Shown here in pieces: positions 2,538 through 5,692 of a stretch of DNA of 5,711 nucleotides. Both the position numbers and the translations under genes were made by a program. Below the pieces are notes generated by a model. That model was not told where the DNA came from and did no database searches. It saw only the letters and a list, made by a program, of their open reading frames with translations. Source of the DNA: Nitrospira sp. (lineage in GTDB: Bacteria > Nitrospirota > Nitrospiria > Nitrospirales > Nitrospiraceae); assembly GCA_015904055.1 (NCBI GenBank), contig JABMDE010000073.1, forward strand, positions 29,959 through 35,669, in the 5' to 3' direction. Position 1 is the stretch's first letter. Each line of letters begins with the position of its first letter.

Positions 2538-2822
<285 letters not shown>

Positions 2823-2941: not shown

Positions 2942-3256
2942 TTATGCAGCCGTCAGCGGGGATATGCGATTGATTCTGCCTTTGGCCTGTTTCGCTGCCT
3001 CCCACAGATCAACCGCTCGCTGGGCGTTCAACCAGAACTCTGCGGTGTTCCCAAACAATCGAGAGAGCCGTAGCGCCATTTCAGGGCTGACAGCCCGCCG
3101 TTCCCGAAGCACTTCATTCACAGTCTGCCGCGACACTCCGATGGCTTTGGCGAATCCGGAAACAGTCAGTTCATAGTCCGGCAGGAAGTCCTCGCGCAGC
3201 ATCTCTCCCGGATGGGTGGGCCGTACCTTCCGAACTCCTTTGTTGGGAATAGCCAT
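2942..3256 (-). CDS. higA: HigA-family antitoxin (XRE helix-turn-helix)
   Basis: DNA-binding antitoxin of a HigBA type II system: it binds the HigB mRNA interferase and represses its own operon. The chosen 104-residue form begins MAIPNKGVRKVRPTHPGEML. The helix-turn-helix follows (VSGFAKAIGVSRQTVNEVL, about residues 32-50), then the family signature RRAVSPEMALRLSRLFGNTAEFWLNAQ, about 53-79. An in-frame ATG at 3268, one base after the toxin stop, would add four residues; ATG 3256 is preferred because GAGG lies about six bases upstream. The toxin stop is 13 bp away, the usual HigB-then-HigA order. The antitoxin looks complete although its toxin is truncated. Confidence 0.88.
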   Translation of the reverse strand: MAIPNKGVRKVRPTHPGEMLREDFLPDYELTVSGFAKAIGVSRQTVNEVLRERRAVSPEMALRLSRLFGNTAEFWLNAQRAVDLWEAAKQAKGRINRISPLTAA

Positions 3257-3269
3257 ACCAAACCTCATA

Positions 3270-3491
3270 TCAATGATAGTCAGTTAGCTCAACATCAAAT
3301 GCATCACCATCGACAAATCGAAAGCAAATCCGCCACTTCATGTTTACCGAGATTGAATACTGGCCCTCTCGATCTTCTTTCAACCTATGAAGCCGGTTGC
3401 TTGGGGGAATCTTCAGATCATCGACACAGACAGCCGAATCGAGGTACTGCAACCTTCGTAAAGCTCCACTCCAGATCTCGGCCCTGTCCAT
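3270..3491 (-). CDS. higB: HigB-like toxin, N-terminus lost at the duplication junction (probably inactive)
   Basis: HigB toxins are RelE-fold ribosome-dependent mRNA interferases. The clear family match starts at about EIWSGALRRLQYLDS and continues through NRLHRLKEDREGQYSI, WRICFRFVDGDAFDVE and the terminal DYH, the usual HigB end. Family members are about 92 residues; only about 71 here are family-like, and the first 20-25 (normally with an SF/F..K start) are missing. The loss falls exactly at 3481/3482, where the second copy of the module begins. Codons upstream of 3482 on this strand are antisense to the zinc-ribbon gene. ATG 3491 gives 73 residues; a TTG at 3521 would add ten antisense-derived residues. 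The original promoter and ribosome binding site must also be gone. It could equally be called a pseudogene. Confidence 0.75.
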   Translation of the reverse strand: MDRAEIWSGALRRLQYLDSAVCVDDLKIPPSNRLHRLKEDREGQYSISVNMKWRICFRFVDGDAFDVELTDYH

Positions 3492-3692
3492 ACCGACACA
3501 GAGTTCTACCTGCGTACGCAACCGGATGTGCCGTATCGGCTGAAAGAGATTTCTTGCACCGCCTGCAACCAGCAGGGGGTCGGTCTGGACTTCCGAGCCA
3601 CGATGTCCGTCCGCGACGCCTATTATTTCGTGACGTGCCAGACATGCAATCGGCAGTTCCCTGAAAAATCATCGCTGGAAGCCTACGAATAA
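3482..3692 (+). pseudogene. 3' fragment of the zinc-ribbon gene, copy 2
   Basis: It encodes the last 69 residues of the four-CxxC protein, including its second zinc ribbon (CTAC, CQTC), and ends in the same EAYE and stop. There is no start: the frame upstream holds only seven codons of unrelated sequence after a TAA at 3459-3461. Compared with 1844-2053, 16 codons differ and 12 of these are synonymous, so the sequence evolved as a functional gene before it was cut. Confidence 0.85.
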
Positions 3693-3718
3693 CTCAACAA
3701 GCTCCAGCGATGCTGGTG

Positions 3719-3724
3719 TATAGT
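3719..3724 (+). promoter_or_regulatory. -10 box (TATAGT) before acidic gene, copy 2
   Basis: Same TATAGT and same six-base distance to ATG 3731 as in copy 1, although several nearby bases differ between the copies. The retention supports a functional, leaderless-type start. Confidence 0.4.
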
Positions 3725-3730
3725 GACGAT

Positions 3731-3913
3731 ATGACTGACACACCCAACCAAGCCGACCAATCGACGCCTGACGAGAAACCCAAGGCGAGAAAAGAGCTCA
3801 CCATCATCTCTGTCCCGGACGATCGCGATATGATCGCCGAGGAAATGGCCGAGATGTTCGAGGAAGACAAAGTCTCCCACCAGCACGGCAGCTCGGAGCC
3901 GGAAGCGGACTGA
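3731..3913 (+). CDS. Acidic 60-residue protein of unknown function, copy 2
   Basis: 57 of 60 residues match the copy at 2092-2274 (N6, D9, M42 instead of K, G, L). Only five bases of 183 differ, two of them silent. The gene is intact even though the zinc-ribbon gene before it is truncated and has no start, so any expression must come from the local -10 box. An in-frame ATG at 3710 would add seven residues; ATG 3731 is chosen for the same reason as in copy 1. Confidence 0.68.
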   Translation: MTDTPNQADQSTPDEKPKARKELTIISVPDDRDMIAEEMAEMFEEDKVSHQHGSSEPEAD

Positions 3914-4192
3914 AGCCCGCATTACTCGTCAAGCGTTTTCGGCAGCAATTCCCCGCACCCTGCACATCACGCACAACGCTGAGCGATCGTGCTCTACTCA
4001 ACGCTTCGGCTCGACCGCAATAGGCTTCGCAGTTGCTGGCCTGCGGAACTTGCTGTCTTGTTGCTTCGCCAAGCCAGCTTCGAACAATCCTCGGCCTCCT
4101 TCAGACCGCAACTGCTTGCCAACTAACGGTGTCCTCGCCTCCGCGATTCGCTCACAGAACCCCTCAGCGCTGCTCCAACAGACAGAATCTCA
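3914..4192. other. Noncoding spacer between convergent genes, copy 2, with an inverted repeat
   Basis: 279 bp, similar to 2275-2537 but with indels and many substitutions. It contains GCAGTTGC (4029-4036) and its exact complement GCAACTGC (4108-4115); the arms extend imperfectly outward through GGC/GCC. In copy 1 the right arm is altered to ATAACTGC without a compensating change, so the pairing is not conserved. No gene is supported. Confidence 0.45.
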
Positions 4193-4480
<288 letters not shown>

Positions 4481-4541
4481 TCAGGCAGACTCAAGCTCCT
4501 TAATGCTTTTGCCAGTCCTGGTCTTCCAGGTGAGTGCGAAC

Positions 4542-4691
4542 TTAAGAGGCCAGCCCCTGCCGAACGGCTCGCGTTGCGTTCTCACACCGAACCTTGTTGC
4601 TCTCGCGTTTGGCCTCGGCCTTCCGACCCCAGTAGGCGCTACGACCCCTTTTTGCTCCAGCGTGATCAGTCTTGTGGGCTCTTCCAGCCAT
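4542..4691 (-). CDS. Basic 49-residue protein, unknown function
   Basis: ATG 4691 to TAA 4542, starting MAGRAHKTDHAGAK and containing AYWGRKAEAKRESNK. It is rich in Arg and Lys. From memory, small conserved hypothetical proteins with a YWG-x-x-AEAK core exist; no function is known to me. The ATG lies 20 bp after the antitoxin stop; AGGAGG (4709-4704) is 12 bases upstream, rather far, and an in-frame TTG two codons earlier would be at six bases. Copy 1 of the module retains only the last codons (about 2887-2910, with the stop at the matching place). An overlapping frame (4481-4702) is less likely to be coding. Confidence 0.55.
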   Translation of the reverse strand: MAGRAHKTDHAGAKRGRSAYWGRKAEAKRESNKVRCENATRAVRQGLAS

Positions 4692-4711
4692 AACCAATTC
4701 AATCCTCCTGC

Positions 4712-4999
4712 CTATGCCACACGCAGGACAAGCCGCTTACCGCAAGCCTTGACGTACTTTCGAAGCGTGGCCACGGACGGGGAATGCTTTCCCGTGGCCA
4801 GCGCACGCTCGATGCGCGCAATGGCAGGCGCCTGTGTCCCCATTCGCTTCGCCACCTGCGCCTGGGTCAGGCCGGCCTCGTGCCGGGCTTTCAACAACGT
4901 GTCAAGGAGTTCGGCCTCCTCCCGCTCAAGACGCCGAACCTCTGCGCGCACGCCTGGTCGCCGCATCAGACGCTTCACCAACTGGTCATGCGTTTTCAT
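4712..4999 (-). CDS. XRE-family antitoxin of a Gp49/RelE-type toxin-antitoxin pair
   Basis: A 95-residue protein with a Lys/Arg/Glu-rich N-terminal helix region (about 1-34) and a helix-turn-helix at about 37-85: LLKARHEAGLTQAQVAKRMG, then APAIARIERALATGKHSPSVATLRKYVKA. This is the usual antitoxin partner of Gp49-like (DUF891) toxins; it binds the toxin and the operon promoter. The start is supported by GAGGTG about four bases upstream. The gene lies 66 bp after the present toxin stop, but the ancestral toxin frame runs 14 nt into it. It appears intact. Confidence 0.88.
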   Translation of the reverse strand: MKTHDQLVKRLMRRPGVRAEVRRLEREEAELLDTLLKARHEAGLTQAQVAKRMGTQAPAIARIERALATGKHSPSVATLRKYVKACGKRLVLRVA

Positions 5000-5051
5000 G
5001 TTTCACCTCTTTCATCCGCCTCTCAGCAATTTCTCGCTCACGAGCCGGTGT

Positions 5052-5071
5052 CTTTTCTGATTTCTTCAGGA
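5052..5071. repeat. 20-bp tandem direct repeat, unit 1
   Basis: The 20 bases at 5052-5071 (CTTTTCTGATTTCTTCAGGA) are repeated exactly and immediately at 5072-5091. On the minus strand the array lies at the end of the toxin gene and shifts its frame. Confidence 0.97.
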
Positions 5072-5338
5072 CTTTTCTGATTTCTTCAGGAAGCTGTGCA
5101 GCATGACAATCCGCCGACCGACAAGAGTGCAAAAGAACACACGGGCAATGCCTTCGGCCCCCTTGAGCCGTAATTCGAAGAGACCACCCCCAAACGCCTT
5201 GGTATGCGGCTCTCCAAGATTTTGTCCGAGGGACACCATTCGCCTGGTCAAGACGATATATCGTGCCGCAAGCGTATCTGGAAGAGTGAGGATCTGTTCC
5301 TGAACCTCTTCACCGTAATACCCGATCGTATAATCCAC
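5066..5338 (-). CDS. Gp49-like/RelE-superfamily toxin, C-terminus frameshifted by a 20-bp duplication
   Basis: Phage Gp49-like (DUF891) toxins are RelE-fold proteins that cleave mRNA at the ribosome. The 90-residue product starts at GTG 5338 and shows the family core: QEQILTLP, then LGEPHTKAFGGGLFELRLKG, EGIARVFFCTLVGRRIVMLHSFLKKSEK. It then ends in S and TGA, whereas family members continue with K-T-P and a charged helix. Reading through with one 20-bp repeat unit removed gives TPAREREIAERRMKEVKHENA and a stop at 4988-4986: 110 residues, overlapping the antitoxin start by 14 nt. The present form lacks this C-terminal helix and the overlap, so activity is doubtful. It heads a same-strand group with the antitoxin, a 49-residue protein and a GIY-YIG gene. 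Confidence 0.85.
   Translation of the reverse strand: MDYTIGYYGEEVQEQILTLPDTLAARYIVLTRRMVSLGQNLGEPHTKAFGGGLFELRLKGAEGIARVFFCTLVGRRIVMLHSFLKKSEKS
5072..5091. repeat. 20-bp tandem direct repeat, unit 2
   Basis: Exact copy of 5052-5071. In the toxin frame it encodes LKKSEK plus partial codons. Twenty is not a multiple of three, so the second passage is read out of frame and meets TGA at once. Confidence 0.97.
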
Positions 5339-5343
5339 CGCTC

Positions 5344-5372
5344 ACAATAACAAATATGTTATGCTGCTGCAA
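5344..5372 (-). promoter_or_regulatory. Candidate promoter of the second toxin-antitoxin operon
   Basis: On the minus strand, TTGCAG (5372-5367) and TATTGT (5349-5344) are separated by 17 bases. The -10 box ends five bases before the GTG start, which again leaves almost no leader. No ribosome binding site is visible. Confidence 0.35.
5347..5362. promoter_or_regulatory. Inverted repeat, candidate antitoxin operator
   Basis: ATAACA (5347-5352) and TGTTAT (5357-5362) are perfect 6-bp arms around AATA. The repeat lies in the spacer of the candidate promoter, where an XRE antitoxin would be expected to bind to repress its own operon. Binding is inferred from position and symmetry only. Confidence 0.4.
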
Positions 5373-5440
5373 CGAGGACCGGCCTGGATAGCGCGGTGCG
5401 CGCACCCGATGGATCGCACCACAGGCCATTCCCAGACGGT

Positions 5441-5692
5441 TCATGCTAGACGGATCATCTCAACCGCCGCGTCTTGCTCGATTCTTCCCAGCGCCGACAC
5501 TTTACCGCCTTTTTCTTTTCTGACGATTCGCTCAATCTGCACCAGTGCGCCGCGGTGCCAGGAATCAAACGCCTCATTCTGAGGAGAAGCGAGCCGATCC
5601 TGCCGCCCCACTTCATACCGGCCCTGTTCATTGCACAACCAGGCCCGCTTCTCCCCCTTCATCTCACGCAGTTCACTCACGACCCGATACAC
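5441..5692 (-). CDS. Hypothetical protein, 83 codons, possibly partial at the right edge
   Basis: Not recognised. The frame is open to the window edge, so the gene may begin further right. Within the window GTG 5692 is a plausible start, with GGAG (5703-5700) seven bases upstream. The product is charged and without membrane segments; it includes MKGEKRAWLCNEQGRYEVGR and ends in EQDAAVEMIRLA. It lies upstream of the second toxin on the same strand with a gap of about 100 bp that holds that operon's candidate promoter. Confidence 0.5.
   Translation of the reverse strand: MYRVVSELREMKGEKRAWLCNEQGRYEVGRQDRLASPQNEAFDSWHRGALVQIERIVRKEKGGKVSALGRIEQDAAVEMIRLA

What the first reader, a model, noticed from the sequence alone, without database searches (positions are those of the whole stretch)
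5052..5091. Perfect 20-bp tandem duplication frameshifts the second toxin and uncouples it from its antitoxin
With one repeat unit removed, the minus-strand frame continues past SEK as TPAREREIAERRMKEVKHENA and stops 14 nt inside the antitoxin gene, which is the normal family C-terminus and a typical coupled overlap. With two units the toxin ends at residue 90. A short perfect tandem repeat can be gained or lost by slippage, so this could be a reversible on/off switch for the toxin, or a recent knockout.
Basis: seen in the sequence. Interest (0 to 1): 0.72.

Follow-up and report, generated by a model that had tools for sequence, protein, structure and literature searches.

The report
Broken toxin gene, intact antitoxin gene
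A 20-letter stretch of DNA has been copied twice in a row inside a Nitrospira toxin gene, cutting off the end of the toxin while its antidote gene stays whole; this looks like a recent breakage of a kind that related bacteria show repeatedly, not a designed on/off switch.

Summary
A perfect 20-bp head-to-tail duplication (5052-5071 / 5072-5091) shifts the frame of a Gp49-family (HigB/RelE-like) toxin gene, which stops at residue 90. Of 80 GTDB relatives, 77 read open to 107-111 residues, 3 have early stops, none ends at 90. The lost part is a conserved C-terminal helix (P91 and R101 in 77 of 77 open relatives, K103 in 74).

The switch reading is not supported: no relative examined has two units, the duplication has no flanking microhomology, and there is only one extra copy. 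Uncoupling is true as geometry (14-nt overlap becomes a 66-nt gap), but the antitoxin keeps its own strong ribosome site, and 8 of 81 relatives have a natural 11-20-nt gap.

New context: in the Nitrospira family, 10 of 23 assessable relatives have a toxin broken by nonsense codons or 5' deletions; the antitoxin frame is complete in 8 of those 10 and looks as constrained as beside intact toxins. The window fits as one more, very recent, lesion. Its other toxin (HigB) is also truncated beside an intact HigA. An assembly error cannot be excluded without reads.

The parts
5066..5338 (-). Truncated Gp49-family (HigB/RelE-like) toxin gene, GTG start, 90 aa, ends ...KKSEKS
   Evidence: ORF; Pfam PF05973 Gp49 E 6.8e-18, 65 bits against cut-off 23.9, profile 2-76 of 90; 77 of 80 GTDB relatives open to 107-111 aa
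5052..5091 (.). Exact 20-bp tandem duplication, 2.0 copies, no flanking microhomology
   Evidence: single unit in L001 and L002
4986..5051 (-). Out-of-frame remainder of the toxin gene (21 codons and stop), still open and conserved
   Evidence: own-frame translation of this piece alone; of 21 codons, 2 synonymous and 1 nonsynonymous differences from L001, 4 and 4 from L002
4712..4999 (-). Intact XRE/HTH_3 antitoxin gene, 95 aa
   Evidence: Pfam HTH_3 E 1.5e-9; dN/dS 0.04 against G001
5003..5009 (-). Shine-Dalgarno-like GAGGTGA just upstream of the antitoxin ATG
   Evidence: sequence read; function inferred
5348..5361 (.). Near-palindrome TAACAAATATGTTA, likely operator of the operon
   Evidence: pattern TAACANATNTGTTA found once per TA copy and only at the TA locus in 15 of 20 Nitrospira genomes, absent in 5; within 60 nt upstream of the toxin in 67 of 80 GTDB loci; intact in the window
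3273..3521 (-). The window's other toxin, HigB-like, lacking its N-terminal part
   Evidence: PF05015 matched only at profile 30-91 of 91; a block-duplication boundary lies at 3482
2942..3268 (-). HigA antitoxin of that pair, intact
   Evidence: TIGR02607 109 bits against cut-off 47.7

Best explanation
This is a recent loss-of-function lesion in a chromosomal Nitrospira type II toxin-antitoxin operon (Gp49-family HigB toxin first, XRE antitoxin second). A 20-bp tandem duplication shifts the frame at codon 90, so the toxin loses its conserved C-terminal helix and is most likely misfolded or inactive. The antitoxin is probably still translated from its own ribosome site and still able to bind its operator. 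It is one of many separate toxin-breaking lesions in this operon across Nitrospira, where selection appears to keep the antitoxin but not the toxin. Shown: the duplication in the sequence, the frameshift, the intact antitoxin, operator conservation, and recurrent toxin lesions. Inferred: loss of toxicity, continued antitoxin translation and operator binding, and the reason the antitoxin is kept (antidote to incoming relatives, or tolerance of a decaying module).
For: 77 of 80 GTDB loci read open to 107-111 aa and none ends at 90. In those 77, residues lost here are nearly fixed: T90 in 75, P91 in 77, A98 in 76, R101 in 77, K103 in 74, E104 in 76. AlphaFold2 on nearly the same alignment gives the L001 toxin pLDDT 86.4, pTM 0.79 with a helix at 92-109, but the 90-residue product pLDDT 48.7, pTM 0.37. 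The M. tuberculosis TAC toxin paper (PMC9098466, passages) says this long helix occurs in closely related Gp49-like toxins, contacts the P-site tRNA, and that alanine at K113 or R117 affects toxicity. The out-of-frame tail is still conserved, so the lesion is young. In 23 assessable Nitrospira-family relatives there are 3 with nonsense codons and 7 with 5' deletions in the toxin; the antitoxin frame is complete in 8 of those 10. Nearest-pair dN/dS for antitoxins of toxin-broken loci is 0.00-0.10, except the G003/G006 pair at 0.36 with dS only 0.055; intact loci other than G006 give 0.00-0.12.
Against: No reads, so a real duplication is not proven. Toxicity of the 90-residue product was not tested; the active-site-type residues F83 and K85 are still encoded. 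The AlphaFold contrast rests on a shallow alignment (33 and 32 rows), and the five intact models ranged from 64.5 to 86.4. The relatives whose names are known are mostly metagenome-assembled genomes, so some 5' deletions could be contig joins. The dN/dS pairs mix time before and after toxin loss, so they do not prove selection after it.
Confidence: 0.7

Rival explanations
1. Assembly artefact: the two units come from a bad join of contig ends that share 20 bases, and the cell has one unit and a full toxin.
For: Exactly 2.0 copies with zero extra identity on either side, which is what an unmerged 20-base overlap would give; the tail is almost unchanged; no other sequence examined has two units; the source genome is not held, so the window may be a metagenome contig.
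Against: A true duplication without microhomology looks the same. The gene belongs to a group that is repeatedly broken in this genus, which raises the prior for a real lesion. (The unit carries a substitution relative to L001 in both copies; both explanations predict that.)
Confidence: 0.2
2. Reversible on/off switch: slippage between one and two units turns the toxin on and off.
For: Perfect 20-bp tandem repeats can lose a unit by slippage (general knowledge, no call); the tail is still conserved.
Against: No allele with two or more units in the relatives read or in viral contigs; no pre-existing repeat or microhomology that would favour gain; only two copies; relatives lose the toxin by lesions such as deletions that cannot switch back.
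Confidence: 0.05
3. The truncated protein is still a working or altered toxin, or a partner that titrates the antitoxin.
For: Residues 1-89 are unchanged in frame and conserved (dN 0.010, dS 0.169 against L001); the active-site-type positions F83 and K85 remain; P0031 is a 98-aa C-terminally shortened relative on a 305,837-base contig.
Against: Loses residues fixed or nearly fixed in 77 relatives; poor predicted fold; the helix matters in a related toxin (PMC9098466, passages). The low dN can reflect history before the lesion.
Confidence: 0.05

Closest known systems
Gp49-family (PF05973) HigBA modules, such as higBA2 of Acinetobacter plasmid pAB120 (PMC5906591, passages)
   Same: Toxin gene first, XRE antitoxin second; Gp49 toxin; the nearest plasmid-borne relatives of the window toxin, on Acinetobacter plasmids, are 69-70% identical (pAB120 itself was not compared)
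   Different: Here the toxin is cut at residue 90 and no longer overlaps the antitoxin gene
Streptococcus pneumoniae HigB (PDB 6AF4; PMC7984235, passages) and the TAC toxin HigB1 (PDB 7AWK/7NBU; PMC9098466, passages)
   Same: Fold of the intact relative L001: Foldseek TM 0.71 to 6af4_C, 0.72 to 7awk; both papers describe a C-terminal helix
   Different: The window protein lacks that helix
Orphan antitoxins left by decayed TA pairs (PMC7192599, PMC10790755 and PMC7354431, passages)
   Same: Antitoxin kept without its toxin; anti-addiction proposed as one role
   Different: Those are surveys of Klebsiella and E. coli and a review; here the lesions are read one by one in one operon of Nitrospira

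Membership tests
Type II TA, Gp49/HigB family | Toxin matches Pfam Gp49 above its cut-off | tested here: met
   65 bits against 23.9, though only profile 2-76 of 90
Type II TA, Gp49/HigB family | Toxin gene precedes an XRE/HTH antitoxin gene | tested here: met
Type II TA, Gp49/HigB family | Complete C-terminal helix with the TP...A..R.KE motif | tested here: not met
   relatives have it; the window product ends at residue 90
Type II TA, Gp49/HigB family | Toxicity neutralised by the antitoxin | not testable with these tools
   needs expression assays
Phase-variable gene controlled by tandem repeats | Different unit numbers in related strains | tested here: not met
   one unit in L001 and L002; 77 of 80 GTDB loci open to 107-111 aa; no close strain with the window's allele was available
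Phase-variable gene controlled by tandem repeats | Mixed alleles within a population | not testable with these tools
   no reads
Orphan antitoxin after toxin decay | Complete antitoxin frame beside a disrupted cognate toxin | tested here: met
   same in 8 of 10 toxin-broken Nitrospira-family relatives

The most novel reading that the evidence does not exclude
Nitrospira as a lineage is shedding this toxin while keeping its antitoxin under purifying selection as an immunity gene against incoming phage- or plasmid-borne relatives of the toxin; the window's duplication would be a freshly caught step in that process.
Probability: 0.25. Interest if true: 0.5.

Novelty: new member of a known kind. 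Interest (0 to 1): 0.27.

Why it matters
Why bacteria keep antitoxins after losing the toxin is an open question. This operon gives a compact natural series in one family: 10 intact toxins, 3 open toxins without the usual start codon, 3 with nonsense codons and 7 with 5' deletions, plus the window's duplication. Antitoxin function could be compared across that series. The duplication alone is an ordinary mutation.

Tried and rejected
Whole-genome search for the window: no genome is held. Viral contigs for the 40-mer: none. Direct PDB match with the 90-residue product: none; the profile of intact relatives found 3 distinct sequences. A wider regulon for the antitoxin as the reason for its retention: rejected as far as an exact-pattern search goes, because the operator-like pattern occurs only at the TA locus in 15 of 20 genomes and nowhere in the other 5; the backward control pattern occurred in 1 of 20. 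Paper searches for phase-variable TA toxins by tandem duplication and for Nitrospira HigB pseudogenes listed nothing on this case; listings only, and only open-licence PMC papers. Alignment A1 (38 rows) held one row, L109, taken from the wrong strand; when it was rebuilt I dropped that row and five more (P0001, P0006, P0044, P0100 and L076, with longer or shifted N-termini), giving 32 chosen rows of 110 residues plus the window. In those 32 chosen rows T90, P91, A98, R101, K103 and E104 are invariant, but over the 77 open GTDB loci only P91 and R101 are; the wider count is the one I rely on. Programmed frameshifting was considered only by eye: no standard slippery heptamer was seen before the TGA; not tested further.

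Full report
Observation. The window (5711 bases) contains one exact tandem duplication, 5052-5071 and 5072-5091, unit CTTTTCTGATTTCTTCAGGA, with no further identity on either side. It is the only exact tandem duplication with period 8 to 199 in the window; in 300 Markov shuffles (periods 8-59) the longest was 11. In the 82 loci (786,066 bases) 8 exact tandem duplications with period 12-60 were found, only one with period 20 or more, so such events are uncommon.

Effect on the genes. On the minus strand a Gp49-family toxin (PF05973, 65 bits against a cut-off of 23.9) runs from GTG at 5338 and stops at 5066 after 90 residues. The XRE/HTH_3 antitoxin (4712-4999, 95 aa) is complete. The sequence downstream of the repeat, read by itself, is TPAREREIAERRMKEVKHENA and stops 14 nt inside the antitoxin gene.

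Relatives. Of 80 GTDB loci with the nearest toxins (the best 80 of 166 found), 77 read open to 107-111 residues (58 at 110, 15 at 107, 4 at 111) and 3 have early stops; none ends at 90. None of the 120 homologues listed, out of 4642, has length 90; most are 110. I read 21 of those 120. Four of the 21 have an altered C-terminus near the same place (P0004, P0031, P0043, P0068; some are on short contigs), so C-terminal loss may not be unique. The nearest relative, Nitrospira sp. YR-XLJ-2 (L001), is collinear with the window over 1-1102, 1232-2274 and 4551-5689 and has one unit and 110 residues, so the window is most likely a Nitrospira chromosome.

What is lost. Over the 77 open GTDB loci the lost positions hold T90 in 75 (S in 2), P91 in 77, A98 in 76, R101 in 77, K103 in 74 (R in 2, Q in 1) and E104 in 76. 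AlphaFold2 puts residues 92-109 of the L001 toxin in a helix (pLDDT 86.4, pTM 0.79; other models down to 64.5); the 90-residue product gives pLDDT 48.7 and pTM 0.37. Foldseek places the intact model with S. pneumoniae HigB (6af4, TM 0.71) and the TAC toxin HigB1 (7awk, TM 0.72). In PMC9098466 (passages) this long helix is described as found in closely related Gp49-like toxins, as touching the P-site tRNA, and as holding K113 and R117, whose replacement affects toxicity. By a constant offset of 10 these would be positions 103 and 107 here (107 is H in L001); that offset is my inference from the F-x-K motif spacing, not an alignment. In PMC7984235 (passages) the S. pneumoniae active site includes R68, R73, F90 and K92, K92 mattering least; the equivalents of the last two by the same motif (F83, K85) are still encoded here. 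Loss of toxicity is therefore likely but not shown.

Age and origin. The 21 tail codons differ from L001 by 2 synonymous and 1 nonsynonymous codons, and from L002 by 4 and 4, and the two units are identical, so the change is recent. The unit has no microhomology at its ends, which argues against gain by slippage at a pre-existing repeat. It is also what an unmerged 20-base contig overlap would look like; without reads I cannot separate the two.

Coupling. Of 81 loci with an antitoxin match (the 80 GTDB and 2 viral loci; L003 had none), 63 have the 14-nt overlap; 8 with an ATG at the aligned start have a gap of 11-20 nt; 7 more have no start codon at the aligned position and are unresolved; the other 3 overlap by 4 or 17 nt. 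The window antitoxin has GAGGTGA just before its ATG, where L001 and L002 have GAGGTTA. The antitoxin is therefore probably still made.

Operator. The near-palindrome TAACANATNTGTTA lies just upstream of the toxin in the window and within 60 nt upstream in 67 of 80 GTDB loci. In 15 of 20 Nitrospira genomes it occurs only at the TA locus, once per TA copy (G004 has two copies), and in 5 of 20 not at all, four of them 5'-deleted; the backward control occurred in 1 of 20. This fits local autoregulation, not a wider regulon.

Recurrent toxin loss. Of 175 genomes of the family around G001, 24 carry a close antitoxin at E <= 1e-25. One (G150) is cut by a contig end. Of the other 23, 10 have an open toxin with GTG or ATG at the usual start; 3 (G053, G010, G011) are open but lack ATG/GTG/TTG there, though G011 has an in-frame TTG just upstream (as L028, L038, L052); 3 have nonsense codons (G003 at codon 3; G004 at codon 15 in both of two tandem copies; G005 at codons 13 and 33); and 7 have lost the 5' part of the toxin (G160, G106, G116, G107, G164, G093, G129) at different points. 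In G093 about 20 codons and in G129 about 7 codons remain, the latter judged by eye. The antitoxin frame is broken only in G107 and G129, both toxin-deleted. A looser relative, G148, also has one stop in its toxin. Among the 80 GTDB loci, early stops are in 3 of 15 with a Nitrospira-type title (my count) and 0 of 65 others (Fisher p 0.0055; a post hoc test). Antitoxin dN/dS to the nearest other antitoxin is 0.00-0.10 for toxin-broken loci other than G003 (0.36 with G006, at dS 0.055) and 0.00-0.12 for loci with intact toxins other than G006; the pairs include time before the loss, and G107, G129 and G150 were not in this test. Some 5' deletions may be contig errors.

The other pair in the window. 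HigB-like 3273-3521 matches PF05015 only from profile position 30, its 5' end running across position 3482, where a block duplication (1843-2905 and 3482-4560, 88% identical) begins. HigA (2942-3268) is complete. Both toxins of the window are thus damaged and both antitoxins are whole.

Verdict. A true and well-read observation, most likely one more toxin-breaking lesion in an operon that Nitrospira repeatedly disarms while keeping the antitoxin. Orphan antitoxins are known from other surveys (PMC7192599, PMC10790755, PMC7354431; passages). Homologous toxins with antitoxins occur in two viral contigs (L081, L082), and more distant toxin relatives in 3628 plasmid records, 3534 of them under 60% identity, so an antidote role is possible but untested.

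Noticed in passing
1843-2905 and 3482-4560: Direct duplication of about 1.07 kb at 88% identity with a HigBA pair between the copies; the first 430 bases of both copies match one and the same place in L001.
   Followed up: partly
3273-3521 (-): HigB-like toxin lacking about 29 N-terminal profile positions, apparently cut by the duplication boundary at 3482, beside an intact HigA.
   Followed up: partly
L094 / L111 (G004, contig C121): The whole TA operon is present twice in tandem, both copies with the same nonsense codon in the toxin and an intact antitoxin.
   Followed up: partly
L028, L038, L052: Nitrospira toxins with an open frame whose usual start codon is replaced by GCG or GGG; possibly further silent losses of the toxin.
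   Followed up: partly
5348-5361: Near-palindromic operator-like site found upstream of this toxin in 67 of 80 GTDB loci of diverse bacteria and nowhere else in the 20 Nitrospira genomes searched.
   Followed up: yes
2538-2819 (-) and 4193-4474 (-): Two copies of a 93-aa protein without a Pfam or NCBIfam match at E 0.001.
   Followed up: no
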